Shown: positions 1 through 62,355 of the stretch, one piece after another
Layout: the number at the start of each line of letters is the position of its first letter
How positions within the stretch are numbered: the stretch's first letter is position 1
Assembly: GCF_937616625.2 (NCBI RefSeq)
Contig: NC_065572.1
Location: 57,213,653 to 57,277,652 of the forward strand
DNA length: 64,000 nt
From: Mercurialis annua
Lineage: Eukaryota; Streptophyta; Magnoliopsida; Malpighiales; Euphorbiaceae
Direction of reading: 5' to 3'
Made by a program: the position numbers and the translations under genes
Notes under the pieces: model-generated
The model's input: only the letters and a program-made list of their open reading frames with translations
Databases searched by the model: none
Told to the model about the DNA's origin: nothing

Positions 1-1797
1 GTTTTTATGAATGAACATAGACCTTGGATGCTTAAATTTGATGGGTCTAGTACAGATAGGTCTGCGGGTGCTGGAATCATAATAGTATCACCTTCTGGAG
101 CTAAGACCTCCTTGTCTTTTAATCTTGACTTTGAATGTACAAATAATCAATCTGAGTATGAGGCTTTGATTATTGGATTAGAAATCCTCCTAGATCTAGG
201 TGCTAAAAAGGTCAAAATAATTGGAGATTCTCAATTGGTTATTAGACAAGTGTCTGGCGAATATAAATGCATGAGTTACTCTTTAACTTCTTATTATGCT
301 ATTGCTATACAGTTAATAGAGAGTTTTGAAGAGGTTGAATTAGTACATGTTCCTAGAGAGGAAAATTGGGAGGCCGATGAATTATCACAGCTAGCATCTG
401 GCCTACGTCTGTCGGAGGAGTTAACCCACCGACTAGTAATGGTACAAAGAAAAACTCACCCTTCAATTTTTAAAAGAGGAGTACAACTAGATATTTTCAA
501 TATTGATGATAACTTAGTACAGGATTGGAGGAGAGATATTAAAAAGTACCTGGAGAATCCTAGCAAGAAGATGATGTATAAAGTAAGAGTGAGAGCTGTT
601 AACTACGTGCTCATAGAAGATGTTTTATACAGAAGAGGATTCGACAACCTATTGCTAAGATGCCTTGGAACTACAGAGGCACTAGAGGTCATGAAACAAA
701 CTCATGAAGGAGTTTGTGGAGCACATCAATCCGGAGTGAAAATGAGATGGCTGATCCGAAGACATGGTTACTTCTGGCCATCTATCCTAAAAGATTGCAT
801 GACTTTTGCAAAGGGTTGTCAATCGTGCCAAAGGTATGGAAACATACAAAGACTTCCAGCTGCTGAGTTGAAGTCTGTCATCAAACCATGGCCATTCAGA
901 GGTTGGGCCATAGATTTGATAGGTAAAATATATCCTCCATCTTCTAAAAATCACAGTTTCATAATTGTAGCTACTGATTACTTTACCAAATGGGTAGTCG
1001 CTAAGCCATTGGTAAAGACAGAGCAAAAAGATGTTATTAAATTTATTAAAGAGGAAATTATTCATCAATTTGGAATTCCACAATCAGTAACTACTGACCA
1101 GGGCACAATGTTCACTGGTAAGGAGATGCAAGAATTTGCCACTGATTATGGAATAAAATTATTGACCTCTACACCTTATTATGCTCAGGCCAATGGCCAA
1201 GCTGAATCTTCTAATAAAATTATCATCAACATAGTTCAAAAAATGTTGGAAGAAAATCCAAAGGATTGGCATCGGATTTTATCAGAAGCACTCTGGGCAT
1301 ATCGCACCTCTAGGCGAAATGCTACAGGAGTAAGTCCATTTATGCTAACCTATGGTCATGATGCAGTGTTACCCATGGAGGTGGTGGTGAGGTCATTGAG
1401 AGTAGCTAAGCAGAATCATTTGACTCCAGAAGATTACAATGAAACCATGATGATGGAGTTAGAAAATCTAGAAGAAGGGAGACTTCAGGCTTTAAACAAC
1501 ATGATAATACAGAAGAAGAAAGTCTCCAGAAGCTACAACAAGAAAGTTAGACCTAAGACATTTCAAGAAGATGAGCTAGTATGGAAGTTGATCTTACCCC
1601 CTGGTACTAAAGATAGAGAATATGGGAAATGGTCTACTAATTGGGAAGGGCCATTCTTAGTCCACAAGGTGATGAAGGGGAATGCGTACTGGCTATCAAG
1701 TCTAGAGGGTGAGCCTCATAGAAAATTTATTAATGGAAAGTACTTGAAGAAATACACTCCCACCATCTGGGAGAAATACAACTTAGAAATGACTTAA
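1..1797 (+). CDS. Retrotransposon pol, partial: RNase H and integrase
   Basis: The frame is open from base 1, so the ATG at 7 is internal and not a true start; the stop is at 1795-1797. Residues 1-135 are an RNase H with the acidic set in LKFDGSS, NNQSEYEAL, GDSQLV and NWEADELS. Around residues 235-280 is the integrase zinc finger (HEGVCGAHQ ... CQSCQRYG). The integrase core has D in AIDLIG (about residue 303), D in TTDQGTMF and E in GQAESSNK, the last two separated by 35 residues (D-D35-E). The C-terminus has the usual NWEGPFLV motif. I see no internal stop or frameshift, so this part could be functional. Confidence 0.93.
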   Translation, partial: VFMNEHRPWMLKFDGSSTDRSAGAGIIIVSPSGAKTSLSFNLDFECTNNQSEYEALIIGLEILLDLGAKKVKIIGDSQLVIRQVSGEYKCMSYSLTSYYAIAIQLIESFEEVELVHVPREENWEADELSQLASGLRLSEELTHRLVMVQRKTHPSIFKRGVQLDIFNIDDNLVQDWRRDIKKYLENPSKKMMYKVRVRAVNYVLIEDVLYRRGFDNLLLRCLGTTEALEVMKQTHEGVCGAHQSGVKMRWLIRRHGYFWPSILKDCMTFAKGCQSCQRYGNIQRLPAAELKSVIKPWPFRGWAIDLIGKIYPPSSKNHSFIIVATDYFTKWVVAKPLVKTEQKDVIKFIKEEIIHQFGIPQSVTTDQGTMFTGKEMQEFATDYGIKLLTSTPYYAQANGQAESSNKIIINIVQKMLEENPKDWHRILSEALWAYRTSRRNATGVSPFMLTYGHDAVLPMEVVVRSLRVAKQNHLTPEDYNETMMMELENLEEGRLQALNNMIIQKKKVSRSYNKKVRPKTFQEDELVWKLILPPGTKDREYGKWSTNWEGPFLVHKVMKGNAYWLSSLEGEPHRKFINGKYLKKYTPTIWEKYNLEMT

Positions 1798-20140: not shown

Positions 20141-23032
<2,892 letters not shown>

Positions 23033-26890: not shown

Positions 26891-27835
26891 ATGTCTACCA
26901 AAAGTAGCATTGTATTATTTGCAGCACTTGTTTTTAGTTTCTCCCTTGCTGCTGCATCAGACATTAGTCCTCTCCAAGATTTCTGTGTGGCAAACTCCAC
27001 TAGCCAAGGTAATAAATAATATTATCTTAGATAAAAAAAGTCTACATATTCACATAATTATAATGTAAATTTTAAATGTTTAGATATATAATCGAGTCGA
27101 GTGGATTCGAACTCGATTCTCAATTATTTTAAAGTTTTTGAGTTCGAACCCATCATGTTATAGTCGAGTTTCAAATTTCAAATTTTAAAGCTCCAATCGA
27201 GTTTGAGTTTTACAGTATTTCGACTCGCCTCGAATATAATAAAAGTATACACATACTTAAATTTCTTTCTTTTTATGATTAAAATGGTGTGGTTGGCAGT
27301 GCTAGTGAATGGACTGTCATGCAAGGATCCAAAGCTAGTGGAAGCAAATGATTTCTTCTTGGGAGGGCTACACATAGCAGGCAACACATCGAACCCAGTA
27401 GGTTCAAGAGTGACTCCCGTCGCAGCAACTCAATTACCAGGACTCAACACTCTTGGCATTTCCATGGCTCGTGTAGATTATGCGCTAACCGGTATGAATC
27501 CTCCGCACACGCACCCACGAGCTACCGAAATCCTGACCGTTCTAGAGGGTACACTTGAAGTAGGGTTTGTAACATCTAACCCCGAAAATCGGCTTATTAT
27601 GAAAGTTATTAACAAAGGCGACGTGTTTGTATTTCCGGTTGGTTCGATTCATTTCCAGAGAAATGTCGGACAATGTAACGCGGTTGCTATTGTTGCTCTA
27701 AGTAGCCAAAACCCGGGCGTAATCACAATCGCTAACGCAGTTTTCGGCTCGAAGCCTGACATCTTATCGGATATTCTTGGAAAAGCTTTTCAAGTTGACA
27801 AGAATATTGTTGCTCAACTTCAAGCGAAGTTTTGA
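26891..27835 (+). CDS. Germin-like protein 1 (cupin), 217 aa, two exons
   Basis: A secreted cell-wall cupin. Exons are 26891-27008 and 27300-27835; the joins CCAAG|GTAATA and GGCAG|TGCTAG keep the frame and give 217 residues. Residues 1-23 are a signal peptide, followed by the conserved Cys pair (DFCVAN and SCKDPK). The first cupin box has the metal ligands in [10 protein letters not shown] (two His and Glu), and the second in [16 protein letters not shown] (His). All four ligands for a Mn-type site are present. Germins and relatives act as oxalate oxidase or superoxide dismutase; which applies here cannot be read from sequence. A polyadenylation-like AATAAA lies at 27878-27883. Its 291-nt intron contains a repeat. 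Confidence 0.95.
27080..27235. repeat. TCGAGT-rich repeat in the intron of germin-like gene 1
   Basis: Repeated words such as GTCGAGTGGATTCGAACTCG and CGAGTTTGAGTTTTACAG, partly inverted, resemble a common plant MITE. It accounts for most of the length difference from the 111-nt intron of germin-like gene 2. Confidence 0.4.
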
Positions 27836-28849: not shown

Positions 28850-29442
28850 TGATGGATACCGAATCCTATTGTAAATATAATGGAGCCGAGTCGCAGGAGA
28901 TCCACTCTCAGACGATACCGGACTCCCCCTGAAGACCGAAAGATATGAAGGAGATACCGAATCTCTAAGATTCGGTAACACGCTAATAAAGACCGAATCC
29001 CATATGATCCGCCAAGAGCGCGTCAGGTCCGGGATTCGGGTAAACGACTAAGTATGGAAATATTGTCCTATTCGGACACAAACACTACATATGGAAAGAT
29101 AAGCTCTACTTTAGGAAGATAAGACTATTTAGGAAGACGTTCCTAAATAGGACTCTTATCAGATTAAGGTAGATCCCGACAAATCAGGAGAATATCTACG
29201 ATACGGCCGAATCCCTACAAAGTAGGATTCACCTGCCTAATACAACTCTACTAGGTATATTCGACTACTATAAAAGGAGCACGAGGTATGCCTAGAATCA
29301 CAATTACATTCATATACTCAAAACGCTGCTCAAAGCTCTAAACTGACTTTAGCATCGGAGAGTTAATCGGACAACCACCGTCCGGTTAGCTTCTACCCTG
29401 TTTTGCAGGTTCACTCACCGGTTCAGAAGGCAGACTCCATCA
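28850..29442 (+). repeat. 5' LTR of element 2
   Basis: Starts TGATGGATACCGAATCC; contains a TATA box at 29269-29276; ends ACTCCATCA directly before the primer-binding site. Confidence 0.95.
29269..29276 (+). promoter_or_regulatory. TATA box of the element 2 LTR
   Basis: TATAAAAG about 170 bp before the LTR end; the same box recurs in the 3' LTR. Confidence 0.65.
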
Positions 29443-29444
29443 AT

Positions 29445-29462
29445 TGGCGCCGTCTGTGGGAA
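29445..29462 (+). promoter_or_regulatory. Primer-binding site of element 2
   Basis: TGGCGCCGTCTGTGGGAA begins two bases after the LTR and starts with the TGG expected opposite a tRNA CCA end. Near-identical or decayed forms follow the LTRs at 40216 and 51841. Confidence 0.8.
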
Positions 29463-29517
29463 AGGCTTAACTAAACTTCAAAAGAAGGAGCTTTTCTGAA
29501 CTCAAATACAAATCTCA

Positions 29518-32500
29518 TTGAAGAAGATGACTTCTGAAAGAGTAAACCTGAAGGATCAAACGACACAGAGAAAACGAAAAGCAACAGAACTCTCAACTCC
29601 TCCTCCAGTAACTTTTGACGGAGAGGACTTCGGAAGAATAGCTGAAGAGCACAACGAAGCTCTGGTAGTGGCCATGATTATCGAACACTGGAACGTTGAG
29701 AGAATCCTGATCGATGAAGGAAGCGCAATAAACCTAATAACAAAAAAGGCCTACGAAAGCCTAGGAGGAGACCTAGCGGAACTAAAACGAAACGCCACGC
29801 CTGTGGTAGGATTTGGGGGCTTGCCAATTAAGCCCAACGGAACAATTACACTCGATGTCAAGCTAGGAAGGACAAGGAAAAGCGAGGAATTACCTACACG
29901 GTTTAGCGTCGTAGAAATCGACCTGCCATACAACGCGATACTGGGGAGACCTTTCCTCCACGACTCAGCCGCCGTGACGAGCATAAAGGCGCTAACCATG
30001 AAGATACCGACGAAACAAGGAATTATCACGATACAAGGAAACCGAGCCGAGGCGAAAAAGTGCTACGAACAAGCAATAAAAGAATCAGGCGAAGCAATGG
30101 CAATAGAAGAAATCCTTAATCACGACATCGAAGAAAAAGAAACAGCACCCGAAGGCGAAACAAAGAAACTCCAACTCGACAAGGAAAAAAGAGTAAATCT
30201 CGGCGCAAACATGAACCCAAAGATCGAAAGCGAAATCACGGCCATGCTGAAAAACAACGTCAAAACCTTCGCTGCAAACGCATCAGAAATAGTCGAAATA
30301 GACCCCCAAGTCATTACTCATGATCTAAATGTAGCAGAAGCGGCGAACCCAGTGAAGCAAAAGAAAAGGAAGTTCTCGGAAGAAAAACAGAAAATAATCG
30401 CTGAAGAAGTAGAAAAACTGGAGAAAGCAGGATTCATACGAGAAGTCCACTACCCCGAATGGGTAGCTAACGTAGTTATCGTAAAGAAAGCCAACGGGAA
30501 AAACAGAATGTGTGTGGATTACACCGATCTAAACAAAGCGTGTCCTAAAGATAGCTACCCTTTCCCAGATATCGATCAACTCGTGGACTCTACTGCTGGA
30601 CACGCGATGTATAGCCTAGCCGACGCAGCTCAAGGCTACCACCAAATTCAGATGAAGGAGCAAGACCAGGAAAAAACTTCATTCATCACGGAAGGAGGAA
30701 CTTACTGCTACACGGCAATGCCTTTCGGCTTGAAAAATGCTGGAGCAACATACCAAAGACTTATGAATTTCATGTTCAAAGACGAGATAGGAAAGCGAGT
30801 CCAGGTGTATGTAGACGACCTAATCATCAAGAGCGAGAAGGAAGAAACCCATGCAAGAGATCTTGAAGAAACATTCAACATACTGAATAAGTTTGGAATG
30901 AAGCTGAACCCCGACAAATGCACGTTCGGCGTACAAGGCGGGAAATTCCTGGGATTCATGATATCTCAAAGAGGAATAGAGGCGAACCCCGAGAAGATCA
31001 AAGCAATTATGGACATGAAGGCACCAAGAAGCATAAATGAAGTTCAAAAACTCAACGGGCGAATCACAGCACTCGGTAGATTCATGTCTTGCTCAGCAAA
31101 AAGATGCTTGCCTTTCTTCAAAGCCCTCAAAGGAACGCAAAAATTTGAATGGAATGAAGACTGCGAGAACGCCTTTGAAGAAATAAAGAAGTTCCTCGTC
31201 ACCCCTCCATTGCTAAGCAGACCGCTGAAAGGGGAGACACTATACCTATACATCAGCACCACGCACGAGACCATCGGGACAGTGCTGGTGAGGGAAGAAG
31301 ATAATGAGATGAAGCCAATCTACTACATTAGTCGAGTCCTGAAGGGCGCGGAGACACGATACCCCGAGATCGAAAAAATGGCACTGGCCGTATTGACCAC
31401 AGCTAAAAAGCTGAGATACTACTTCCAAAGTCACAACGTTGTGGTAAGAACAAATCAACCATTGCGAAAGGCGATCCAACGACCAGAAACTTCTGGAAGA
31501 TTAGTCCACTGGTCCATCCAACTCAGCGAACACGACATAAGATACGAACCTCGTCCGACTCTGAAAGCACAAGCTTTGGCGGACTTCGTAGCAGAAATAA
31601 CTCCAACCGAGACTGGCCAACCCAAACCAGCCTTGGTATGGGAACTCCACGTAGACGGAGCGTCGAATGAAAAAGGAGCTGGAGCAGGAGCCATCCTCAA
31701 AGGACCCGAAAAAATCAGAATCGAATATGGAGTAAACATCCAATTCGCCGCCAGCAACAATGTAGCTGAGTATGAAGCCCTAATCGCAGGCCTCGGCCTC
31801 GCATTAGAAATAAGAACGGAAATCCTAAAGATCTATAGCGACTCCCAGCTGGTGGTAAATCAGGTCAAGGGAGAATATCAAGCCAAAGAAACAGGGATGA
31901 TCGAATACCTGAGTCAAGTCAAAACACAGCTCCAACAGCTGGAGGCACAAGGAGGACAATGGGAAATCATTCAAATCCCGAGAGAGGAAAACACCGAAGC
32001 CGACGCCATCGCCAAATCAGCGTCAGAACTCGGAGATCTATTCGCTAAAATGCAGTTAAAGGAAATTCTCGAATCGCCAAGCACCAGAAAAGCAGAAGTC
32101 ATGGCAATCGAGGAGGCCGACTCCTGGATGACCCCATTGATCAAATATTTAGACCGCGGCGAGTTACCAACAGACAAAGTCGAAGCCATTCGCACCATCA
32201 GAAAATCTGCCAACTACTCTTTTTATAACGGAGTTCTCTACCGAACCTCTTTGACTCATCCATGGTCTAGGTGCGTCTCGCCTCAGACAGGAGATTCCAT
32301 CTTAAAAGAAATCCACGAAGGAATATGCGGAGCACACGAAGGAGCAGTCACCATAGCGAGAAAAACAATACTCCAAGGATACTACTGGCCGACCATCAAA
32401 GAAGACGCGAAAACACTAGTCAAGAAATGTGATAAATGCCAAAGACACGACAACATCAGCCGTGTACCAGCAGTACCTCAAGGATCAATGGAAAGCCCGT

Positions 32501-33360
32501 GGCCGTTCGCCACATGGGGGATTGACATAGTTGGACCGTTTGAAACGGGAAAACACCAAGTGAAATTCCTAATTGTCGCAATAGAGCACTTCACAAAATG
32601 GGTAGAGGTAGCGCCTGTCGCAACCATCACTGCAGCCAAAGTAGAGGAATTCTTCAAGAACGAAGTAATATGCCGATTCGGCATACCCCACACTGTAATA
32701 GCAGACAACGGCAAACAATTCAATTGCAAGCGGTTCAAGGCATTTTGCAAAGGACTGATGATCAATTTGAAATTTACTTCGGTGGCGCACCCTCAGACAA
32801 ACGGAATGACAGAAGTCACCAACCGAACCATAGCACAAGGAATAAAAAAGAGACTTTCTCAGTATAAGGAGAACTGGGCAGAAGAACTATACAGCGTTCT
32901 ATGGGCATACAGAACAACTCCTAGAAAAGGAACTGGCGAAACACCTTTTAGGCTCGCCTACGGTACTGAAGCGGTAATTCCAGTAGAAATTGGCATACCC
33001 AGCATCAGGGTAAACTATCTAGAAGAAGAAACTAACGAGGCTAGAACAAGGCTATGTCTAGACCTACTAGAGGAAAGAAGGGATGAAGCGGCAGCCCGAG
33101 CCGCTACATACAAGAAGCAAGCTGCAAGATACCATAACAAAAGAATGAATTCTAGAGAATTTCAAAGAGGCGATCTAGTCTTACGAAACGCGGAAGTTGG
33201 CAGAGGAAACGCAGGAGTGAAGAAAATGCAGGCTAATTGGGAAGGCCCCTATATTATCGAAGAAGCTACTGGCAAAGGCGCATATAGACTAAAGACAATA
33301 GCTGGATCCATGGTACCCAGATATTGGAATATAGAGCACCTGAGAAAGTATTATCAATAG
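29518..33360 (+). CDS. Retrotransposon pol polyprotein, 1280 aa, gag-less
   Basis: One uninterrupted frame. After about 30 N-terminal residues comes the aspartic protease, with active site LIDEGSA (residues 64-70) and ILGRPF (about 141). Then follow reverse transcriptase (VKKANGK about 321; catalytic YVDD about 431), RNase H, and a second plant-type RNase H with HVDGAS, NVAEYEAL, SDSQLV and NTEADAIAK (about 711-840). Integrase has the HHCC finger (HEGICGAH ... CDKCQRHD, from about 932) and D-D35-E (GIDIVG, IADNG, MTEVTNR). The protease has D-E-G where D-[ST]-G is usual; the related element at 48480 has the same, so this is a lineage trait. No capsid or CCHC zinc-knuckle region precedes the protease. 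Confidence 0.96.
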   Translation: MKKMTSERVNLKDQTTQRKRKATELSTPPPVTFDGEDFGRIAEEHNEALVVAMIIEHWNVERILIDEGSAINLITKKAYESLGGDLAELKRNATPVVGFGGLPIKPNGTITLDVKLGRTRKSEELPTRFSVVEIDLPYNAILGRPFLHDSAAVTSIKALTMKIPTKQGIITIQGNRAEAKKCYEQAIKESGEAMAIEEILNHDIEEKETAPEGETKKLQLDKEKRVNLGANMNPKIESEITAMLKNNVKTFAANASEIVEIDPQVITHDLNVAEAANPVKQKKRKFSEEKQKIIAEEVEKLEKAGFIREVHYPEWVANVVIVKKANGKNRMCVDYTDLNKACPKDSYPFPDIDQLVDSTAGHAMYSLADAAQGYHQIQMKEQDQEKTSFITEGGTYCYTAMPFGLKNAGATYQRLMNFMFKDEIGKRVQVYVDDLIIKSEKEETHARDLEETFNILNKFGMKLNPDKCTFGVQGGKFLGFMISQRGIEANPEKIKAIMDMKAPRSINEVQKLNGRITALGRFMSCSAKRCLPFFKALKGTQKFEWNEDCENAFEEIKKFLVTPPLLSRPLKGETLYLYISTTHETIGTVLVREEDNEMKPIYYISRVLKGAETRYPEIEKMALAVLTTAKKLRYYFQSHNVVVRTNQPLRKAIQRPETSGRLVHWSIQLSEHDIRYEPRPTLKAQALADFVAEITPTETGQPKPALVWELHVDGASNEKGAGAGAILKGPEKIRIEYGVNIQFAASNNVAEYEALIAGLGLALEIRTEILKIYSDSQLVVNQVKGEYQAKETGMIEYLSQVKTQLQQLEAQGGQWEIIQIPREENTEADAIAKSASELGDLFAKMQLKEILESPSTRKAEVMAIEEADSWMTPLIKYLDRGELPTDKVEAIRTIRKSANYSFYNGVLYRTSLTHPWSRCVSPQTGDSILKEIHEGICGAHEGAVTIARKTILQGYYWPTIKEDAKTLVKKCDKCQRHDNISRVPAVPQGSMESPWPFATWGIDIVGPFETGKHQVKFLIVAIEHFTKWVEVAPVATITAAKVEEFFKNEVICRFGIPHTVIADNGKQFNCKRFKAFCKGLMINLKFTSVAHPQTNGMTEVTNRTIAQGIKKRLSQYKENWAEELYSVLWAYRTTPRKGTGETPFRLAYGTEAVIPVEIGIPSIRVNYLEEETNEARTRLCLDLLEERRDEAAARAATYKKQAARYHNKRMNSREFQRGDLVLRNAEVGRGNAGVKKMQANWEGPYIIEEATGKGAYRLKTIAGSMVPRYWNIEHLRKYYQ

Positions 33361-33765
33361 ATTAATTCATGGCATGTACTTATTTCCATTTTTGAAATAA
33401 AAAGGCGATTTGGCGATAAGAAGCAAATTTTATAGGCTCGCTCGAGACCTAATACATATAATTTAACAAGAATCGCTTGAATCTTAGTTAAAAAATAATT
33501 TAGACTCATCCGAGTCAAATAAATAAAAGGATCCGTTCGGACCTACAAATAAATTACACCAGCAGAAGTTTAAATTAACTTCTCAAAATAGCAAACGAGT
33601 TTAGATTAACTCTACAACTAAAGAAAAGCAATGGTCAAAAGATCATTATATTCACAGAAGCAAAATTACAAAGGATCCGCCTACGATCCAATACAAAAAA
33701 GGCGAAAGCAAAAACTAAAGCAAAAAATACAAAAAAGCGAAAAATACAAAAGAAGGAAATAAAAG
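33361..33765 (+). other. Spacer between pol and the antisense gene of element 2
   Basis: About 400 bp between the two convergent stop codons. Words such as GGATCCGTTCGGACC and GGATCCGCCTACGATCC recur, but no frame is seen. It must hold the 3' ends of both transcripts. Confidence 0.55.
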
Positions 33766-35570
33766 CTAAGCCTTCTTCAAAGCATCTTGCTTCTGCTTAT
33801 CAAGCTTCGCCTTCACCTCCTTCGCCAAAGAAGTAGGATCCAACTGATTGACTCCAGAAAGATCGACGCCAGGATTCTGCTCCCGCAGCTTTGCCCCGAT
33901 CGCCAACCGGTATTGAGTCATGACTTGGGAATAAAAGCTCCCAGAGTCACCCAATCGCCGGCGGAGACGCCCCTCTTCTTTCTTCAAATCATCCCTCTCC
34001 TTAGCGAGAGCACCTGAAGAAGACTGTAGAGACTCGACTTCCTCGGACAAAGTTCGAACCCGAGCCTCTAAAGCGGAAATCTCCCGAGTCTTGGCAGATA
34101 CGGAGGACCTCAGCTGTTGGATCAGACCAGTCGCCTCGCCAGCCTCCTCCTCCATCTTTTGTTTTTCGGAGAGCCAGGATTCGGAATCTCTCTGGAGCTT
34201 CTTCAATTGATCCACCGCATCCCTTCGGCGGCGCTCCAAAACAGCGATGGACTGGACCACCTGAGAAAGAAAGCAACAAATAAGAAAAAAGGAGAAGCAA
34301 ATCATAATATAAAACAAAAAAAAAAAAAAAAAAAAAAAAGCATACCGAAAAACCGCCGAGACAGGCGAACTCAGCCAAATTATCGCCATGCTCGCGATCA
34401 ATGGACTCAATGTCCTCTTTTATCATAATATTCTCCATGCAAGCATGAAGAATGGCGACGTTTGAAAGTCGAGGCGGATCTTGTGCGTCCGCCCAAGCCG
34501 CAAACCGAGGTGCCTCCTCGATAGACACCCCAGAAGACTTCTTCTTCTTGGGACGCTTGGCAGAAGCTCCAGCCTGGTCCTCAGCAGGACGTTTCTGACC
34601 GGCGGTAGACAACCCCTTCAGAGAAGGAGTTGATTCCTTCGAAGGAAGCAAAGGCGACTCAGAAGTCGCAGCAGGAACTTGATCGCCGGAAGCAGGACCA
34701 AGATCCACCGAATCAAGCGTTGGATCCGGTACGGCGATCGTAGACGGATTAGGAACGCCACTGGTGACCTCGCCCATATCTACAGTCATATCGACATGAA
34801 AATTGTCAAGCAAATGTTCAAGAGAAGTCGACATCCTACAAAACAAAAACATAACAACAAAAGATTAGAAAAATACCTTCTAAAGGAAGACCCGCCAAAA
34901 GTATTTCACGGCGACTCAAATACTGTTCTAAAAGAACGCTGTACTTGGGCTTATCAAAACGACAATCCGACAGCAAAGACAGGGCGAAGTCCTTCTCCCC
35001 ATCATCCAGATCAGGTACATCAGTAAGCGAAACCTTACTAGAAGTAAAACTCCGCGAAAAAGAGGAGAAAGAAGAGTGCTGAACCAAGAAAAACTTAGGG
35101 GTCCAACCCTTCAAAGAAGAAGGAAGACTAAAAAGAGATCGATTCGGTCGACCACCAGCAAAAATAAATTCCTCACCCTTTCGGCGGGAGAAAACATAAA
35201 AATAATTAAAAAGAGCAAGTGAAGGCTCCTGCATCCGAACCCTACACGATTCCATAAAAGAACAAAGAAGGCGAATCGCGTTCGGATGCAGTTGACCCAA
35301 AGGAACACCTAAATTGTGACAGACCTCTACAATTAAAGACTCTAAGGGAAACCTAAGACCCGCTAAAAGCTGTTCATGAAAAATTACTATCTTGGAGGGC
35401 GAATCGGTGCTATGATTCGCCCGATACGATTTTGCCGGTCTCAGAATAACATACGACTCAGGAAAGTTGAATTCCTCGGCATAACCGAGTATCTGCTCTC
35501 TTGACAAGGAGCTCCGGGTATATTCTAGCTCGTCACGAGCACCCTTCGCCCCCTCAGTTACTTCTGACAT
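33766..35570 (-). CDS. Antisense gene of element 2: Transposase_28-like protein, 543 aa, three exons
   Basis: Best model: exons 35570-34924, 34835-34346 and 34260-33766 (647, 490 and 495 nt), introns of 88 and 85 nt, total 544 codons in frame. The second intron is clear (TCG|GTATGC ... CTCAG|GTG, both phase 0). The first uses CA|GTATTT ... TTTGTAG|GATG and is inferred because it keeps the frame. Residues about 61-140 (HEQLLAGLRFPLESL, then LGQLHPNAIRLLCSF) match my recollection of Pfam 'putative gypsy type transposon' (Transposase_28). Residues 297-315 form a bipartite nuclear-localisation-like motif (KRPAEDQAGASAKRPKKKK), and exon 3 is a long coiled coil (380-490). A candidate TATATAA lies upstream at 35909-35915. 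Despite the family name no transposase activity is implied. Antisense frames are known in Tat elements; their role is unknown. Confidence 0.75.
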
Positions 35571-35908
35571 TTTAAAATTTTTAAAATGGGGGGGAAACAC
35601 GGAGTGATGATGAAATTAAAACTCTAAAAGATCAAAAGATAGGAAAAGACGAAGAACAAGACGAAGAACAAGAAGAACAAAAGGAATAAAATCAAAACTG
35701 AAAACTACCAAGAAATTAAATTAGCGAAAAGGTAAAATACCTCGCAAGCAAATACGCAGGATCGAAAGAAAGATAAGGAGCAACTTGAAAACGAGGAATC
35801 TTGACAGCAGAAGAAGGAAGCCCACAGAAAGTTTGAAGAAATCGAAGATTTAGCAGTTGCAGAGAAAGCAAAGGTTGAAGAAGAAAGAAAATGAAAGAAA
35901 ATGAGCAA

Positions 35909-35915
35909 TTATATA
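35909..35915 (-). promoter_or_regulatory. Candidate TATA box for the antisense gene
   Basis: TATATAA on the reverse strand, 340 bp upstream of the antisense ATG and inside the internal region, so the gene may not need the LTR promoter. Confidence 0.4.
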
Positions 35916-36189
35916 GCCTGAACCAAAGAAACTGAAAAGACGAGATCCCATAATTACAAATAAGGACCAACTAATAGCGCACGAAGACACTTGTCCTTCA
36001 TTCAGTCATAACCCTCTACTGATAAACAACACGTGGCAACGCAGAATCTTACTAAAGATGAAGCGTCGCCCACAAACATATGAAACGACTCGCCCGGAAT
36101 ATAAAACGACTCGCCCGTATAAAAGAACTCAGCTCCAAAAGAGCTAAAATCCACTAAGGCATAAATGCCAAACTACTTCAGCTCACTTG

Positions 36190-36201
36190 CGGGGGGGCTA
36201 A
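36190..36201 (+). promoter_or_regulatory. Polypurine tract of element 2
   Basis: CGGGGGGGCTAA abuts the 3' LTR start TGATGG at 36202; it is the expected second-strand primer site. Confidence 0.75.
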
Positions 36202-36794
36202 TGATGGATACCGAATCCTATTGTAAATATAATGGAGCCGAGTCGCAGGAGATCCACTCTCAGACGATACCGGACTCCCCCTGAAGACCGAAAGATATGA
36301 AGGAGATACCGAATCTCTAAGATTCGGTAACACGCTAATAAAGACCGAATCCCATATGATCCGCCAAGAGCACGTCAGGTCTGGGATTCGGGTAAACGAC
36401 TAAGTATGGAAATATTGTCCTATTCGGACACAAACACTACATATGGAAAGATAAGCTCTACTTTAGGAAGATAAGACTATTTAGGAAGACGTTCCTAAAT
36501 AGGACTCTTATCAGATTAAGGTAGATCCCGACAAATCAGGAGAATATCTACGATACGGCCGAATCCCTACAAAGTAGGATTCACCTGCCTAATACAACTC
36601 TACTAGGTATATTCGACTACTATAAAAGGAGCACGAGGTATGCCTAGAATCACAATTACATTCATATACTCAAAACGCTGCTCAAAGCTCTAAACTGACT
36701 TTAGCATCGGAGAGTTAATCGGACAACCACCGTCCGGTTAGCTTCTACCCTGTTTTGCAGGTTCACTCACCGGTTCAGAAGGCAGACTCCATCA
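36202..36794 (+). repeat. 3' LTR of element 2
   Basis: Identical in length to the 5' LTR (593 bp). The two differences lie near 36372 (CG in the 5' copy, CA here) and about 10 bp later (CCGGG in the 5' copy, CTGGG here). Confidence 0.96.
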
Positions 36795-37912: not shown

Positions 37913-38330
37913 TGATGGGTACCAGACCCAAACTTAACATTAATAGACCACACTAGGAGTAAGTAGGGCCATAACGCGAATAGATCCAGATCCATAACAT
38001 AAAATCAGACAATACCAATTAACGCCATGTACCTGACGCAGACAAGAGATAGCGGCTAGTAGAGAATCTCGGATTTAGAGGGATCAATATCAGATTCCTT
38101 TGACTAGCACACTCATGACATGAGTCTCCATACCAGGAGCTGATAGGCGGGATTATGGGAATTAAAGGTCAAAATCTGCTTAATCTCAACAAGAAAGGTT
38201 CAAGAAAGATAATAGAGAAACAAACAATATAAATGAAAGATTGAAAGCAGGTATGAAACCTAATTTTACACACACACATTCATATACCTTCAATCATTCT
38301 CCATTGAAGACTCAGTTTCTGACTTATGCA
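37913..38330 (+). repeat. LTR-A, 5' copy, left fragment
   Basis: Starts TGATGGGTACCAGACCC and matches the LTR at 55546-56055 as far as CTGACTTATGCA. It overlaps the right fragment at 39813 by about 280 bp of LTR sequence, so the two are not simply halves of one LTR. Confidence 0.8.
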
Positions 38331-38342
38331 CTAGCTCAATCA

Positions 38343-39812
38343 TGTTTGACCATGTATTGATTTTATCTTTTTGTTGTTAATTAATCGACACTTTTATTAT
38401 CATTTTATATTATAATTAAAATACTTGAATGATTAATTCTTTCTAAGGTCATCAAGTATGTGACTTGATAGTAGAATCCTTAGACTTAATAAAGAATTAT
38501 ATTTCATCTATCCCTAGTATTAATAGAACATTAAAACTAGTATGCCGTTAACTGATGATTATGTTTTACTAATCATATATATGAGATATTAAGTCAAATC
38601 GTAGGTGTTATTTGAGAAATAAGGCACTGGATGACCCACTTTGAGAATACTATATAGATCATTGTCATAGGTAATTCTCATTACAGTTTTATTAGTATAA
38701 TTATTTGATCTTAAAATCACTATGGATTTCTACATAGCTATTTCATATTTTGATACAGTCATATATTATTGTTAACAAGATAATGTAATAGATTGTCATT
38801 GGATACGAAAGTAACTATGTGAGAAATGTGAGTGACCGAGAAGAAATTTTTCCCTCATTTATTTGAGTAAGATATCTATGGGCCCTTTGAAAAGATAGAT
38901 TGAAGAAAATGCATGGCCATGCTAAATGAATTGATAAAGAGTTATCATTTTCAGTCTACTTGAAATCATGAAACTAATGATTGAATATTATAAGGATGAC
39001 AATACTATGCTTTATATTCAATCAGGATATTGTTAGACAAAGAGATTAAAATATTATTGTAAATGGTTAAATCAGATAATCGATATTCATATAACTATGG
39101 TAGTCATAATATTTTGCTAGAGGCCTCTTATAATTTGTGGGTCGAAATAGGGATTTCGGGCCTATTGCCAACGTTATACCTACAAGATCGAACACTAAGA
39201 ACAGGCTCAAAACAGCTATGAGTTGTACAAACCCAATAGAATAAAGTGATTAATAGTTTATTATATATATGTATTTCGTAATATATATATAACAATAAAT
39301 ATATATTAAAGTATTATCTTTTGAAGATAATAATAATAATAATTAAAAGGAGTTTTTGATATACATAAACTCAAGAGAGTTATAAAAAACGTAGTGTTTG
39401 AATATGATTGAAAAATACGTTTTTGAGTAAACCCTAAATGTCTTATTTTTCTATAAATAGACCATTAAGTCTAGGGTTTTAGGTATATGTTTTTCGAAAT
39501 AAACACTAGACATATAATCACTAAATTTATAATTGCTTTATGAAGCAATAGTGCTAGCACACAAGCACTCATTTTGGCAAAGGTCTATTCGTGTGGATAC
39601 TCGTAGAGGACGCGTTCTTTTGAAGGTCGTTTCTGTTCTGAGGCAAGGTATCACCAAAGTGAACCATCTCTCTTCCTTCATACATTTCTGATTGAATTCG
39701 ACATTCAAGTAAGTTTTAATTATACAACCTGTTTTTCTATTCGACTTACATGGATCTTATTTGGGTTTTTGATCTGAAATTCCGTTGCGTTATGAACCTA
39801 GAAAACCTAACA
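38343..39812 (+). mobile_element. Copia-like solo LTR, ~1.47 kb
   Basis: TG start and a TTCCGTTGCG ... GAAAACCTAACA end of the kind common to plant Copia LTRs, with a TATA box (CTATAAATAGACC, about 39459). No target duplication: the left neighbour is AATCA and the right TACCT. Confidence 0.55.
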
Positions 39813-40210
39813 TACCTGACGCAGACAAGAGATAACGGCTAGTAGAGGATCCCAGATTTACAGGGATCAATATGCGATTCCCTTGACTAGCACACTCATG
39901 ATGCGGGTTTCCATACCAGGAACTGATAGGCGTGATTATGGGGAATCAGAGGTTAAAACCTGCCTAATCTCAACAAGGAAGGTCTAAGAAAGGTAAAAGA
40001 GCAACAAACAAAATAAATGAAGGATTGAAAGCAGGTATGAAACCTAATTTTACACACATACATTCATTCTATACCTTTAATCATTTTCCATTGAAGACTC
40101 AGTTTGTGACTTAGGCATCTGAGTATATTCGGACCAACACCAAGTTGAATCATTCAAACTTATTTACTCTTTTTCAGGTTGAAGGAACGGTACAAACCAC
40201 ACTAAAACCA
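39813..40210 (+). repeat. LTR-A, right fragment
   Basis: Begins inside the LTR at ACCTGACGCAGACAAGAG and runs to the LTR end ACTAAAACCA, followed by a decayed primer-binding site at 40216-40233 (TGATGCCGTTTGTGGGAA in place of TGGCGCCGTCTGTGGGAA). Confidence 0.85.
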
Positions 40211-40285
40211 TTATTTGATGCCGTTTGTGGGAACAAGTATTCATTTCAGAATCTAACATTTTAATTTTGATTTTTGTGGTTTAAG

Positions 40286-48515: not shown

Positions 48516-51414
48516 GAAGATTCAAAGGGATGAAAGGCTTTGTGGGAGAGCTAAGAAGAGCCTCTATCCCACTCATCGGGCTCGGAGGAAAACCAATACA
48601 GCCAGAGGGCGCATTTAGCTTATACATGGAGCTGGGGGAAAAAGAAGATGGCCTAATAAAAAGGATGCAAGCGCAGTTCAACAAAGTGGATCTCCCGCTA
48701 GCATATAATGGCATTTTAGGAAGGCCTTTCCTATACCAATCAGGAGCAGCCACCAGCATAAGGTTCCTAACCATGAAGATATCAACCCCAGAAGGAACAA
48801 TAGTAGTACGAGGGAACCAAAAAATAGCCAGAGAATGTTGCATGATAACAACAGTAGAAGATGAAACCATGACCATAGAAGCCTTGCCAGAAAAAACGGA
48901 GGAGACAGAACAAAAAGTCGTAGAACCAGTAGAAGAGATGGAGGAGCTACGTCTTAGTGAGACAAAGACAGTAAAAATAGGGAAAGCGATAACAACGGAT
49001 ATAGAACAAGACATAGAAGACGTGTTGATGAAGAATGTGGAATCATCCGCAGTAGATCCATCAGAAATTCCGGGAATTGACCAAAAAGTGGCATCGCACA
49101 AGCTCAACGTCAAGCCCCAGAGCAAGCCAGTGACACAGAAGAAGAGAAGATTTGTGGAAGGCAAACAGAAGATAATCACAGACGAGGTAAATACCTTGGA
49201 GTCAGTTGGGTTCATCAAGAAAGGTTTTCATCCGGAGTGGGTTGCCAATGTAGTCTTGGTGAAGAAAGCAAACGGTAAATATATAATGTGCGTTGATTTT
49301 ACCGATCTAAACAAGGCATGTCCCAAGGACAGTTATCCTCTGCTCAATATCGACCAGTTAGTTGACTCAACGGCATGCTATAGACTGTACAGCTTTATAG
49401 ACGCAGCCCAAGGGTACCACTAGATACCCATGGACAAAGACGACCAAGAAAAGACGTCATTCGTGATAGACAGAGGCACATACTACTACAACATCATGCC
49501 CTTTGGTTTAAAGAACGCAAGGGCAACGTACTAGAGATTGGTCAGCTTCATGTTTCAAGATCAATTGAGAAGGAACGTGGAAGCCTAGGTAGACGATATC
49601 ATTGTGAAGAGTGTCACAGAGGAGGAACACGCAAGAGACTTAGAAGAGACATTCTCTGTACGCAACAAATTTGGAATGAAGCTCAGTCCAGCTAAATGCG
49701 CCTTTGGAGTAAAAGCTAGAAAATTCCTTGGTTATTTAATCAACCAAAGAGGAATTGAAGCTAATCTCGAAAAAAATCATAGCAGGCACAGAGATGAAAT
49801 CCCCACGAAGCGTGAGAGAAGTGCAGAACTTAAACGGGCGAATTACTGCCTTGGGCATTTTATCTCCTCTTCAGTGAAGAAATCCTTGCCATTCTTCAAA
49901 CAATTAAGAGACATGGAGAAAGTTTGCTTGGGACCAGGAGTGTCAAAAGGCTTTTGAAGAGCTGAAATCTTTCCTAACCACGCCTCCCCTACTCAGCATG
50001 CCAATTGCAGGAGAACCCTTGTACCTGTACCTCTCAGTAGGAAAAGAAACAATAGCTTTAGTACTAGTGAGAGAGGAGGATGAAGAGCAGAGGCCAATAT
50101 ATTACATCAGCAGAACATTGAAGGGCGCATAACTGAACTATCCCACTATTGACAAGCTAGCACTAGCAGTAGTGGTCACATCAAAAAAGTTAAAGCCTTA
50201 CTTCCAAAGCCATACAATTGTCATACATACGAATCAGCCACTCAGAAAGGCTCTTTATCGACCAGAGAACTCAGGGAGACTAGTTAGCTGGTCGGTGCTA
50301 CTGGGAGAGCATGACATCCGGTACGAGCTCAGAAAGACACTGAAGGCGCAGGCACTCGCAAACTTCGTCGCAAAAATGACAGAGAAGCCAATAGGCACAT
50401 TCGCAGAAGACATAACATGGAACTTATTTGTAGATGGGGAAGCAAGTGACCAAGGATCAGGAGCTGGCATCGTCCTACTAGGACCCAACAAAGTAATCAT
50501 TGAGTACGCTGTTCACCTCAACTTCAAATCAACCAACAATGTAGCATGTACGTAAGTTGATCAATATTATTTCAATTATGAAACGTTTGTTTACAGAATC
50601 ACTAACAACATAGCAGAATACGAGGCCCTACTCACAGGGCTGGCTATAGCCAAAGAAGTAAAGGTGGAGAAGTTGAAAATACGCAGCGACTCACAATTGG
50701 TCACTAGCCAAGTTCTGGGACACTTCTAGACCAAAGATGCAAATATGGCGAAGTACATGCAAAAGGAAAAAGAAAGACTCAAAGAACTAGAAAAAAATGG
50801 GAGGACAGTGAGAGATAATTGCCATACCCAAAGAAGAGAATACAAGGGCAAATTTCATAGCTAAAGCAGCAGCGACGCAGAACACTTTGTTTTAGAGAGA
50901 TAGGTCGAAGAAGAGGCTCGAAGAACTTAAAGGAAGATAGGTCGACGAATTATATCATTTCATCTAGGCCTATCGCATCACACCCAAGAGAGAAACCGGA
51001 GAGACTCCTTTTCGCCTCACTTATGGGATAGAAGCAGTCATTCCTATGGAATTAGTAATGTCGACCCTCAGGGTCCAAATCCTAGACCCACAAAGCAATG
51101 AAGTGTCACTGCGACTATGTCTGGATCCTTAGAAGGGAGAAGGTACCAAATAGCCATCAGAGCAGAAGCTTATAGAAGATAGATGAACAGATATCACAAC
51201 GCCAAAGTTAAAGAAAGAAGTTTTCAAAGAAGGAGACTTAGTACTGAAAAAAGCTTAGATTGGCAGAGGAGCAACTGTTGTTGGCAAGCTAGAAGCAAAC
51301 TGGAACAGACCGTACTCGAGTGACTCATGTAGTCGGAAAAGGAGCATACAAAATAGCTGATTTATGGGGACATCGCTACCCAGAACATGGAACATTGAAA
51401 AGCTGAAGAGATAT
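48516..51414 (+). pseudogene. pol pseudogene of element 3
   Basis: Collinear with the pol of element 2: protease end (ILGRPF), RT, RNase H, second RNase H and the integrase C-terminus. In-frame stops at 49413, 49527 and 49588 break the RT, the last replacing the Tyr of YVDD. A partial duplication with a 48-bp insert (50550-50597) splits the second RNase H. The zinc finger and whole D-D-E core of the integrase are deleted near 50940. The frame resumes with AYRITPKRETGETPF and ends IEKLKRY at 51414, where LTR-B begins. Confidence 0.85.
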
Positions 51415-55545: not shown

Positions 55546-56055
55546 AGACACCAGACTAGGACTTAACATTAATAGACACCAGACTGGGACTAAGTAGGGC
55601 CATAAGGCGGATAGACCCAGATCCATAGCGTAGAACCAGACAATACCAATCAACGCCATGTACCTGACACAGACAATAGATAAACTAGTAGAGGATCCCG
55701 GATTTACAAGGATCAATACCAGATTCCCTTGAATATCATACTCCTGATGCGGGTTTCCATACCAGGAGCTGATAGGTGTGATTATGGGAATCAGAGGTCA
55801 AAACCTGCCTAATCTCAACAAGGAAGGTCCAAGAAAGGTAATAGAGCAACAAGCAATATAAATGAAGGATTGAAGGCAGGTATGAAACCTAATATTACAC
55901 ACACATATTCAGTCCATACATTCAATCATTCTCCATTGAAAATTGAGTTTCTGACTTAGGCATCGGAGTGTATTCGGACCAACACTTGTCTAAATCATTC
56001 TAACATATTTACTCTTTTTCAGGTTGAAGGAACGGTACAAACCACACCAAAACCA
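55546..56055 (+). repeat. LTR-A, 3' copy
   Basis: About 510 bp ending CACCAAAACCA, matching the 5' copies. Its first bases are changed: TGATGG is not found, and the ACCAGACT ... TTAACATTAATAGACACC part is imperfectly duplicated. Confidence 0.8.
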
Positions 56056-56060
56056 TTAAT

Positions 56061-61590: not shown

Positions 61591-62355
61591 TCAGAATTTT
61601 GACTGCAGATACGTAACAACATTCTTGTCCAATTGAAAAGCCTTAACCAGAACATCACTTGGAATCTCAGGATTAGATCCAAACACAGCATTAGCAACTG
61701 TAATAACACCAGGGTTTTGGCTATTTAGAGCAGCAACAGCAACTGCATTACTACTTCCCACATTTCTTTGAAAATGGATGAGACCAACAGGAAACACAAA
61801 AACATCTCCTTCGTACAGAATCTTAGTAACGAGCCGATTTTCCGGGTTAGATGTGACGAATCCAACCTCGAGACTGCCTTCAACAACGGTCAGGATCTCG
61901 GAGGAGCGAGGGTGCGTGTGGGGTGGGTTGATACCCGATGGTGCGTAGTCGATACGAGCTAGGGAGATGCCGAGAGTGTTGAGACCCGGTATTTGAGCTA
62001 CATTGACTGGTGTTACCTTTGAACCAGCTAGGTTTGATGTGTTTCCTGCTAAGTGAAGTCCACTGAAGTAGAAATCATTGGCTTCGACCATCTTGGAATC
62101 CTTGCAAGGAACCCCATTTACTGTAACTGTCATCAAACAGATGAAATGCAATTAGAAAATCATTAATTGAACCATATATACTGAGTCAGTCGTACGTGTT
62201 GAGTTATCATATTTTTGTGCATGTATATTAATATTACCTTGGCTATTTGCATCTGCCACGCAGAAATCTTGAAGTGAGGCTGGATCAGATGCAAGTGCAT
62301 AACAAAAGAATGAGAAGATCACAAATCCTAGTAAGGAAATAATTGGAGAAGCCAT
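61591..62355 (-). CDS. Germin-like protein 2 (cupin), 217 aa, two exons
   Basis: Exons are 62355-62238 (118 nt) and 62126-61591 (536 nt), exactly the lengths of germin-like gene 1, with a 111-nt intron (CCAAG|GTAATA ... TGACAG|TTACAG). The 217-residue product has a signal peptide (about 1-22), the Cys pair (DFCVAD and PCKDSK), cupin box 1 [10 protein letters not shown] and cupin box 2 [16 protein letters not shown], so all metal ligands are kept. By eye it is roughly three-quarters identical to gene 1. It should be a secreted apoplastic cupin. Activity (oxalate oxidase, superoxide dismutase or none) is not determinable. Confidence 0.95.

What the first reader, a model, noticed from the sequence alone, without database searches (positions are those of the whole stretch)
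33766..35915. Intact three-exon antisense gene inside a young retrotransposon
Seen: between pol and the 3' LTR of element 2 the reverse strand has a complete model of 544 codons, introns of 88 and 85 nt, a candidate TATA, a bipartite nuclear-localisation-like motif and a coiled coil. Known: antisense frames and Transposase_28-type domains occur in Tat-lineage elements, and their function is not established. Inference: retention of an intact, spliced, oppositely transcribed nuclear-type protein in a recently moved copy suggests a role useful to the element, such as regulating its transcription or chromatin state. Convergent transcription with pol could also produce double-stranded RNA and affect silencing.
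Basis: partly seen in the sequence, partly recalled or inferred. Interest (0 to 1): 0.85.

Follow-up and report, generated by a model that had tools for sequence, protein, structure and literature searches.

The report
Antisense regulator-like gene in retrotransposon

Summary
The antisense gene is real and looks functional, but the proposed first intron is probably wrong. Element 2 (28850-36794) is a Retand-type (Tat, Ty3/gypsy) element in a Mercurialis annua-like genome: 593-bp LTRs differing at 2 sites, TSD ATTAT, two RNase H domains, no gag. The antisense gene matches PF04195 (28.8 bits, cut-off 26.2). Among 21 copies dN/dS is 0.16 (ORF1), 0.22 (ORF2+exon 3) and 0.09 (pol), so the protein was selected while the family moved. 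Codon-pattern mapping gives ORF1 (TRP28) 35570-34877, an untranslated 37-41-nt spacer ending in a 3' splice-site-like motif, ORF2 (NLS-like, coiled coil) from ATG 34834, the 85-nt intron, exon 3, and an unexpected coding-like exon at 35802-35741. Splice sites kept in 34 of 34 copies allow a 540-aa form (97-nt intron) and a 327-aa form lacking TRP28. Antisense TRP28 genes are a known Retand hallmark; what seems new is the corrected structure, the possible two-isoform arrangement and retention of the gene after gag loss. No RNA evidence was available.

The parts
28850..29442 (+). 5' LTR (TGATGG...CCATCA), 593 bp
   Evidence: 2 mismatches, no gaps against the 3' LTR; TSD ATTAT; read
29443..29526 (+). 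84-bp stretch with PBS-like TGGCGCCGTCTGTGGG; no gag between LTR and pol
   Evidence: this stretch sits between LTR and pol, within 2 nt in length, in 20 of 20 fetched full copies
29527..33360 (+). pol ORF: protease-like motif (own reading), RT, RNase H, second (archaeal-type) RNase H, integrase
   Evidence: Pfam hits; dN/dS 0.093 among 21 copies
33766..34260 (-). antisense exon 3: coiled-coil-like region and stop codon
   Evidence: frame; pN/pS 0.23 against divergent copies; NCBI models P0001/P0002
34261..34345 (-). intron 2 (85 nt here; 70-85 nt in 21 copies), phase 0
   Evidence: GT 34 of 34 and AG 33 of 34 copies; absent from NCBI models P0001-P0003 and from 6 of 7 sister-family models
34346..34835 (-). 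antisense exon 2 / ORF2 from ATG 34834: bipartite basic motif (NLS-like)
   Evidence: first 54 nt pN/pS 0.19 in this frame, codon-position p 0.004
34780..34876 (-). proposed intron 1 of the long form (97 nt, AAG|GTATTT ... CTGTAG|AT, phase 1)
   Evidence: GT and AG in 34 of 34 copies; in frame; same phase as sister-family intron 1
34836..34876 (-). untranslated spacer (37-41 nt in copies) with CTAAT/C branch-point-like motif, T tract and TTTTGTAG acceptor-like end
   Evidence: no frame preference; length varies; AG in 34 of 34
34877..35570 (-). antisense exon 1 / ORF1: TRP28 domain (PF04195, residues 62-126)
   Evidence: dN/dS 0.162, PF04195 part 0.036
35741..35802 (-). coding-like exon 0 (KIPRFQVAPYLSFDPAYLLA) ending at donor GAG|GTATTT 35740; no upstream ATG in frame
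   Evidence: pN/pS 0.27, 0 stops in 11 sequences; codon-position p 0.005; donor GT 34 of 34; one near copy, L034, has a stop in it
35909..35915 (-). TATA box TATATAA of the antisense gene
   Evidence: 20 of 21 copies; TATATAAG in 4 of 7 divergent copies covering it (by eye)
36202..36794 (+). 3' LTR

Best explanation
This is the antisense accessory gene of a gag-less Retand (Tat-clade) retrotransposon family that has transposed recently. Shown: the coding segments and their frames, their purifying selection between copies, a conserved TATA box, the PF04195 domain, the loss of gag and the young LTRs. Inferred: RNA polymerase II transcribes the gene from its own promoter against the genomic RNA; the transcript is spliced, and the product is a nuclear protein with an N-terminal TRP28 domain, a basic NLS-like stretch and a C-terminal coiled coil that acts on the element's own DNA, RNA or chromatin. 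Proposed: two products, a long 540-aa form (97-nt intron 34876-34780) and a short 327-aa form without TRP28 (exon 0 donor 35740 spliced to acceptor 34836, just before ATG 34834); the short form could modulate the long one through the shared coiled coil. Introns survive mobilisation because they lie antisense to the RNA that is reverse transcribed. Since gag was lost while pol and this gene stayed under selection, Gag is presumably supplied in trans whereas this gene helps the copy that carries it.
For: PF04195 above cut-off. dN/dS among 21 copies: ORF1 0.162 (bootstrap 0.077-0.296), ORF2+exon 3 0.219 (0.139-0.331), pol 0.093 (0.073-0.117). Frame map from 11 sequences including 9 divergent relatives. 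The two best-scoring donors, 34876 and 35740, and the acceptors 34836 and 34780 are kept in 34 of 34 copies. NCBI models of the sister family lack intron 1 residues at the same domain boundary in 3 of 7 (P0005, P0007, P0010) and intron 2 in 6 of 7 (all but P0005); L029/L030 DNA shows phase 1 for intron 1 and phase 0 for intron 2. LTR divergence 0-1.0% in 21 of 21 copies, matching 5-bp TSDs in 19 of 21. Gag absent in 20 of 20 fetched full copies and in both of the divergent elements, of four tried, that could be read there. Literature: antisense TRP28 ORFs in 97% of clusters, gag-less clusters exist (PMC11963269).
Against: No RNA data. NCBI models P0001/P0002 start inside the spacer (MFLFCRMSTS...), so that annotation uses neither proposed form. 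P0003, by my reading, uses the 34780 acceptor but another donor and is a chimeric model. Four of 7 sister models keep intron-1-like residues. Exon 0 has no ATG. The first 18 ORF2 codons, intronic in the long form, are constrained as coding, so the 97-nt intron cannot be constitutive. Donor 34876 is only 41 nt from the strong acceptor 34836, and joining those two is out of frame. The last 45 nt of ORF1 show no codon constraint against divergent copies (0.93). The 51-nt invariant run over the splice region is not longer than chance. No retrocopy of four tested spliced junctions was found, and the positive control did not complete. Fold comparison of ORF1 gave nothing, so DNA or chromatin action is untested. 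Selection could partly reflect action in trans.
Confidence: 0.6

Rival explanations
1. One reading: three exons with an 88-nt intron 34923-34836, one 543-aa protein.
For: Open frame of 544 codons with GT-AG sites; the acceptor 34836 is conserved in 34 of 34 copies.
Against: Donor is AT in 9 of 21 copies and GT in 0 of 9 divergent relatives; lowest-scoring of the five donors compared; phase 2, whereas the sister-family intron 1 is phase 1; the first 47 nt of the supposed intron vary mostly at third positions of ORF1 (4 of 5 sites); only 10 of 21 copies keep this model against 16 of 21 for the 97-nt one.
Confidence: 0.05
2. Two separate antisense proteins without any intron 1: ORF1 (TRP28, ends in the spacer) and ORF2 (from ATG 34834), made from one mRNA by reinitiation (TAGGATG in the window) or from an internal start.
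For: ORF2's ATG is in 11 of 11 sequences and its first 18 codons are constrained; the spacer is in random frame; NCBI models P0001/P0002 are essentially ORF2 alone.
Against: The TAGGATG overlap is lost in relatives where the spacer length differs; the spacer keeps branch-point-like and acceptor motifs; three of seven sister-family models make a fused protein by splicing there; it leaves exon 0 unexplained.
Confidence: 0.25
3. Antisense RNA is the functional product: dsRNA with the genomic RNA tunes silencing, and the reading frames are incidental.
For: Convergent arrangement: pol ends 33360, antisense stop 33766, and a full-length genomic RNA would cross the gene. Proposed for such elements in PMC7264820.
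Against: Third-position-biased substitution in the tested coding segments and dN/dS 0.16-0.22 require selection on protein. It can coexist but not replace.
Confidence: 0.06
4. A host gene fragment captured recently by this copy.
For: Introns and a nuclear-type protein resemble a host gene (inference).
Against: 40 of 40 scored places (of 372 candidates) carry it at 95% or more; PF04195 is over cut-off at 150 of 150 scored places of 1718 candidates; a sister family has it.
Confidence: 0.02

Closest known systems
Antisense TRP28 (Transposase_28, PF04195) ORFs of Retand-lineage elements (PMC11963269; abstract, Background, Results and Discussion read)
   Same: Position between pol and 3' LTR, antisense orientation, PF04195, coiled-coil-type hits (Smc and the like) in other antisense ORFs, gag-less active clusters (seven lack GAG, two GAG and AP).
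   Different: Introns are not discussed there (0 occurrences of 'intron') and its ORFs are counted singly; Malpighiales, the order of Mercurialis, does not occur in it. Here the frames are inferred to be spliced parts, with an extra coding-like exon and an unusual out-of-frame ORF1-ORF2 spacer. The pol-3'LTR region (2,841 bp) is slightly shorter than the reported minimum of 2,933.
Maize Grande gene23 (Gomez-Orte 2013; not read, known from PMC7264820, parts 1-2 of 3 read)
   Same: Antisense accessory gene before the 3' LTR with its own promoter and a nuclear protein.
   Different: No sequence was compared here; nuclear localisation was shown there, only predicted here.
Sister Retand-type family in the same genome (L029, L030; NCBI models P0005-P0011)
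   Same: TRP28 exon, basic-stretch exon, coiled-coil exon; intron 1 at the TRP28/basic-stretch boundary, intron 2 phase 0.
   Different: P0005-P0011 are 25-29% identical to the window ORF1; intron 1 of L029 is 99 nt, phase 1, acceptor in frame; no ATG right after the acceptor.
Retroviral antisense genes such as HBZ of HTLV-1 (mentioned in PMC11963269)
   Same: Antisense gene with a nuclear product; works-like comparison only. That HBZ has a leucine zipper is recalled.
   Different: No homology was tested or is claimed; here the promoter is internal, outside the LTR.

Membership tests
Retand lineage (Tat clade, Ty3/gypsy) | Two RNase H domains, the archaeal type between RH and INT (PMC6317226, passages) | tested here: met
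   RH at 545-671, RVT_3 at 712-835, integrase 926-1092 of the ORF counted from 29518
Retand lineage (Tat clade, Ty3/gypsy) | Antisense ORF with PF04195 between pol and 3' LTR | tested here: met
   28.8 bits, cut-off 26.2, at 35387-35193 on the minus strand
Retand lineage (Tat clade, Ty3/gypsy) | Long pol-3'LTR region | tested here: inconclusive
   2,841 bp, just under the smallest reported value of 2,933 in PMC11963269
Retand lineage (Tat clade, Ty3/gypsy) | RT phylogeny inside Retand | not tested
   No reference RT set was at hand; Ogre is argued against only by the antisense PF04195 ORF
Retand lineage (Tat clade, Ty3/gypsy) | Full gag-pol (autonomous element; not required of the lineage) | tested here: not met
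   No gag in 20 of 20 fetched full copies; so a non-autonomous Retand-type family, a kind already described (PMC11963269)
Transposase_28 (PF04195) | Score above the curated cut-off | tested here: met
Antisense accessory gene (Grande gene23-like) | Antisense transcript from own promoter | not testable with these tools
   TATA box conserved; no RNA data
Antisense accessory gene (Grande gene23-like) | Nuclear protein | not testable with these tools
   Basic bipartite stretch only, pattern recalled
Recently active element | Near-identical LTRs and TSD | tested here: met
   2 of 593 sites, ATTAT twice; 0-1.0% in 21 copies, TSD same in 19 of 21

The most novel reading that the evidence does not exclude
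One antisense locus of a plant LTR retrotransposon encodes two nuclear proteins by alternative splicing: a long TRP28-coiled-coil protein, and a short form made by splicing a leader exon over the whole TRP28 ORF (905-nt intron) to an ATG that sits directly behind the acceptor. Sharing the coiled coil, the short form would antagonise or tune the long one, a retrovirus-like regulatory pair that stayed under selection after the family lost gag, which would mean that it acts mainly in cis.
Probability: 0.28. Interest if true: 0.72.

Novelty: new variant of a known kind. Interest (0 to 1): 0.5.

Why it matters
What the antisense TRP28 genes do is an open question in print (PMC11963269, PMC7264820). 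This family offers a natural experiment: gag was lost and its absence tolerated, while the antisense gene stayed intact (16 of 21 copies under the 97-nt model) and under purifying selection as the family moved. That separates what can be supplied in trans from what the element keeps for itself. The exon map also warns that surveys of single ORFs may split one spliced gene into several, and it names junctions that RNA-seq can check at once.

Full report
WHAT WAS CHECKED. The product matches PF04195, 28.8 bits against a cut-off of 26.2. The element is bounded by 593-bp LTRs (28850-29442 and 36202-36794) that differ at 2 sites and carry the TSD ATTAT. With a rate of 1.3e-8 per site and year (recalled, from rice) that is of the order of 130,000 years.

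THE HOST AND THE FAMILY. Mercurialis annua is in Malpighiales, Euphorbiaceae. The window lies in a held assembly of 451 Mb at C3:57213653-57277652; a search with the gene DNA gave 372 candidate places, of which the 40 scored match at 95% or more. I fetched 20 of these as full copies with flanks (L009-L028). With the window these are the '21 copies' below; they are the best-matching ones, so the sample leans to young copies. LTR divergence is 0-1.0% in 21 of 21, and 19 of 21 have identical 5-bp flanking repeats.

THE ELEMENT LACKS GAG. Only 84 bp separate the 5' LTR from the pol ATG at 29527; the pol ORF holds RT, RNase H, a second RNase H between RH and integrase, and integrase. The protease is my own reading of a D-x-G-S motif; Pfam finds none in the first 320 residues. 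In 20 of 20 fetched copies the same stretch, within 2 nt in length, leads from LTR to pol. Of four divergent relatives whose 5' ends I tried to read, two were informative and both also lack gag (L051, L053; L052 and L054 did not reach the site). An earlier try (L049, L050) reached the LTR of the L051 element and missed in L050. So the loss is probably older than this burst. The position of the second RNase H is that of Ogre and Retand (PMC6317226, passages), and the antisense PF04195 ORF points to Retand. RT phylogeny was not run.

SELECTION. Among the 21 copies dN/dS (counting method, all pairs, bootstrap over codons) is 0.162 (0.077-0.296) for ORF1, 0.219 (0.139-0.331) for ORF2 plus exon 3 and 0.093 (0.073-0.117) for pol. 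The PF04195 part is 0.036. Shifted antisense frames give 0.79-2.10; on the sense strand, two of six frames tested mirror the signal (0.25 and 0.34), as expected when degenerate positions coincide, but no sense ORF of 150 aa lies there. Pairwise averages ignore relatedness, so the intervals are too narrow. ORF1 is intact in 18 of 21, ORF2 in 18 of 21, pol in 10 of 21. As LTRs differ by about 1% or less while the gene's synonymous divergence is about 5%, most of the filtered change predates the insertions and happened in moving lineages (inference).

The donor at 34923 reads AT in 9 of 21 copies. In a tree of 34 sequences GT occurs in 13, all close to the window; 0 of 9 divergent relatives have it. 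The change is synonymous (CAG/CAA) if ORF1 runs on, and 4 of 5 variable sites in the next 47 nt are third positions of ORF1. Two donors score best on this strand (weights recalled for Arabidopsis), 34876 and 35740; both are GT in 34 of 34 copies, as the acceptors 34836 and 34780 are AG in 34 of 34.

A FRAME MAP FROM DIVERGENT COPIES. I aligned the window and L031 with nine relatives at about 64-84% identity in the exons (L035-L039, L045-L048; L044 dropped) and scanned three frames. Coding signal: 35802-35741 (pN/pS 0.27, no stop in 11, position-3 excess p 0.005), ORF1 35570-34877 (0.30, p 5e-5), ORF2 from ATG 34834 (first 54 nt 0.19, p 0.004), exon 2 (p 5e-5), exon 3 (0.23, p 5e-5). No signal: 35740-35600 (p 0.37) and 34876-34836 (p 0.91). 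These p values shuffle columns and are not corrected for the number of segments. Against this, the last 45 nt of ORF1 alone give 0.93, though the last 99 nt keep a position-3 excess (p 0.004). The 37-41-nt spacer varies in length so that ORF1 and ORF2 are fused in some copies and not in others, hence it is untranslated. It holds a CTAAT/C motif, a T tract and TTTTGTAG directly before GATG; that these are a branch point and acceptor is recalled knowledge.

TWO FORMS. From 35740 (phase 2 of exon 0) the acceptor 34836 fits ORF2's phase; that skips ORF1 and leaves a 327-aa protein from ATG 34834, with or without exon-0 residues. Exon 0 has no ATG upstream in frame, which I cannot explain; a near-cognate start at the ATT at 35799 is a guess. 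NCBI models P0001/P0002 are essentially ORF2 with six extra residues read mostly from the spacer: they support intron 2 and ORF2, but neither proposed form.

SISTER FAMILY. L029 and L030 hold the same three domains; the related NCBI models are 25-29% identical to the window ORF1. The DNA shows intron 1 in phase 1 and intron 2 in phase 0. P0005 removes intron 1 exactly at the phase-1 site read in L029 (33 aa, 99 nt shorter). P0010 removes it too, but, judged on L030's DNA, with a donor nine nt further on, also phase 1. P0007 lacks the intron-like residues as well; its DNA was not seen. P0006, P0008, P0009 and P0011 keep intron-like residues there. Intron 2 is removed in 6 of 7 and kept in P0005. 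P0005 and P0006 are labelled isoform X2. Whether RNA supported these models is not stated. PF04195 as a whole has 1718 candidate places in this genome, 150 of 150 scored over the cut-off.

FUNCTION. The anatomy (TRP28, basic bipartite stretch, coiled coil) and the literature (nuclear product and own promoter for Grande gene23 as told in PMC7264820, parts 1-2 of 3 read; predicted DNA binding of TRP28 in PMC11963269) point to a nuclear regulator of the element. An AlphaFold model of ORF1 from 14 sequences is middling (pLDDT 63, pTM 0.67) and found no clear match. That pol and this gene are kept while gag is gone suggests cis benefit; whether Gag comes from a partner element was not searched for.

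NOVELTY. Antisense TRP28 genes and gag-less Retand clusters are known. I saw no description of introns or isoforms in them: PMC11963269 has no 'intron' and 'splic' only in its reference list, PMC7264820 calls for looking for spliced antisense transcripts, and among the rows listed by searches no other title or abstract start speaks of it; those papers were not opened apart from PMC6317226 (passages). Subscription papers, Gomez-Orte 2013 among them, were not read.

Noticed in passing
window 7-1797 (+): ORF with RVT_3-type RNase H and integrase: apparently the pol end of another Tat-type element.
   Followed up: no
window 49124-50380 (+): Second pol stretch, 66% identical in DNA to element 2's pol.
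   Followed up: no
window 20141-20857 and 22397-23032 (+): Tubulin gene exons (GTPase domain and C-terminal domain).
   Followed up: no
window 27203-27835 (+) and 61594-62151 (-): Two cupin genes, 73.6% identical in DNA; element 2 inserted about 1 kb downstream of the first.
   Followed up: no
window 33503-33689 (-): Five short hairpins in a 386-nt stretch between the convergent 3' ends; Markov expectation 2.1, up to 7 in 300 trials, so weak.
   Followed up: partly
L009 1259-2177: A complete LTR followed four bases later by a partial LTR (query 273-593) before the PBS: a rearranged 5' end.
   Followed up: no
window 37921-40213 and 55550-56058: Dispersed repeat copies 85-89% identical.
   Followed up: no
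G000, P0003 (LOC126657213): An NCBI gene model that seems to fuse unrelated upstream exons to part of this antisense gene, so retroelement genes are annotated as host genes in Mercurialis.
   Followed up: no
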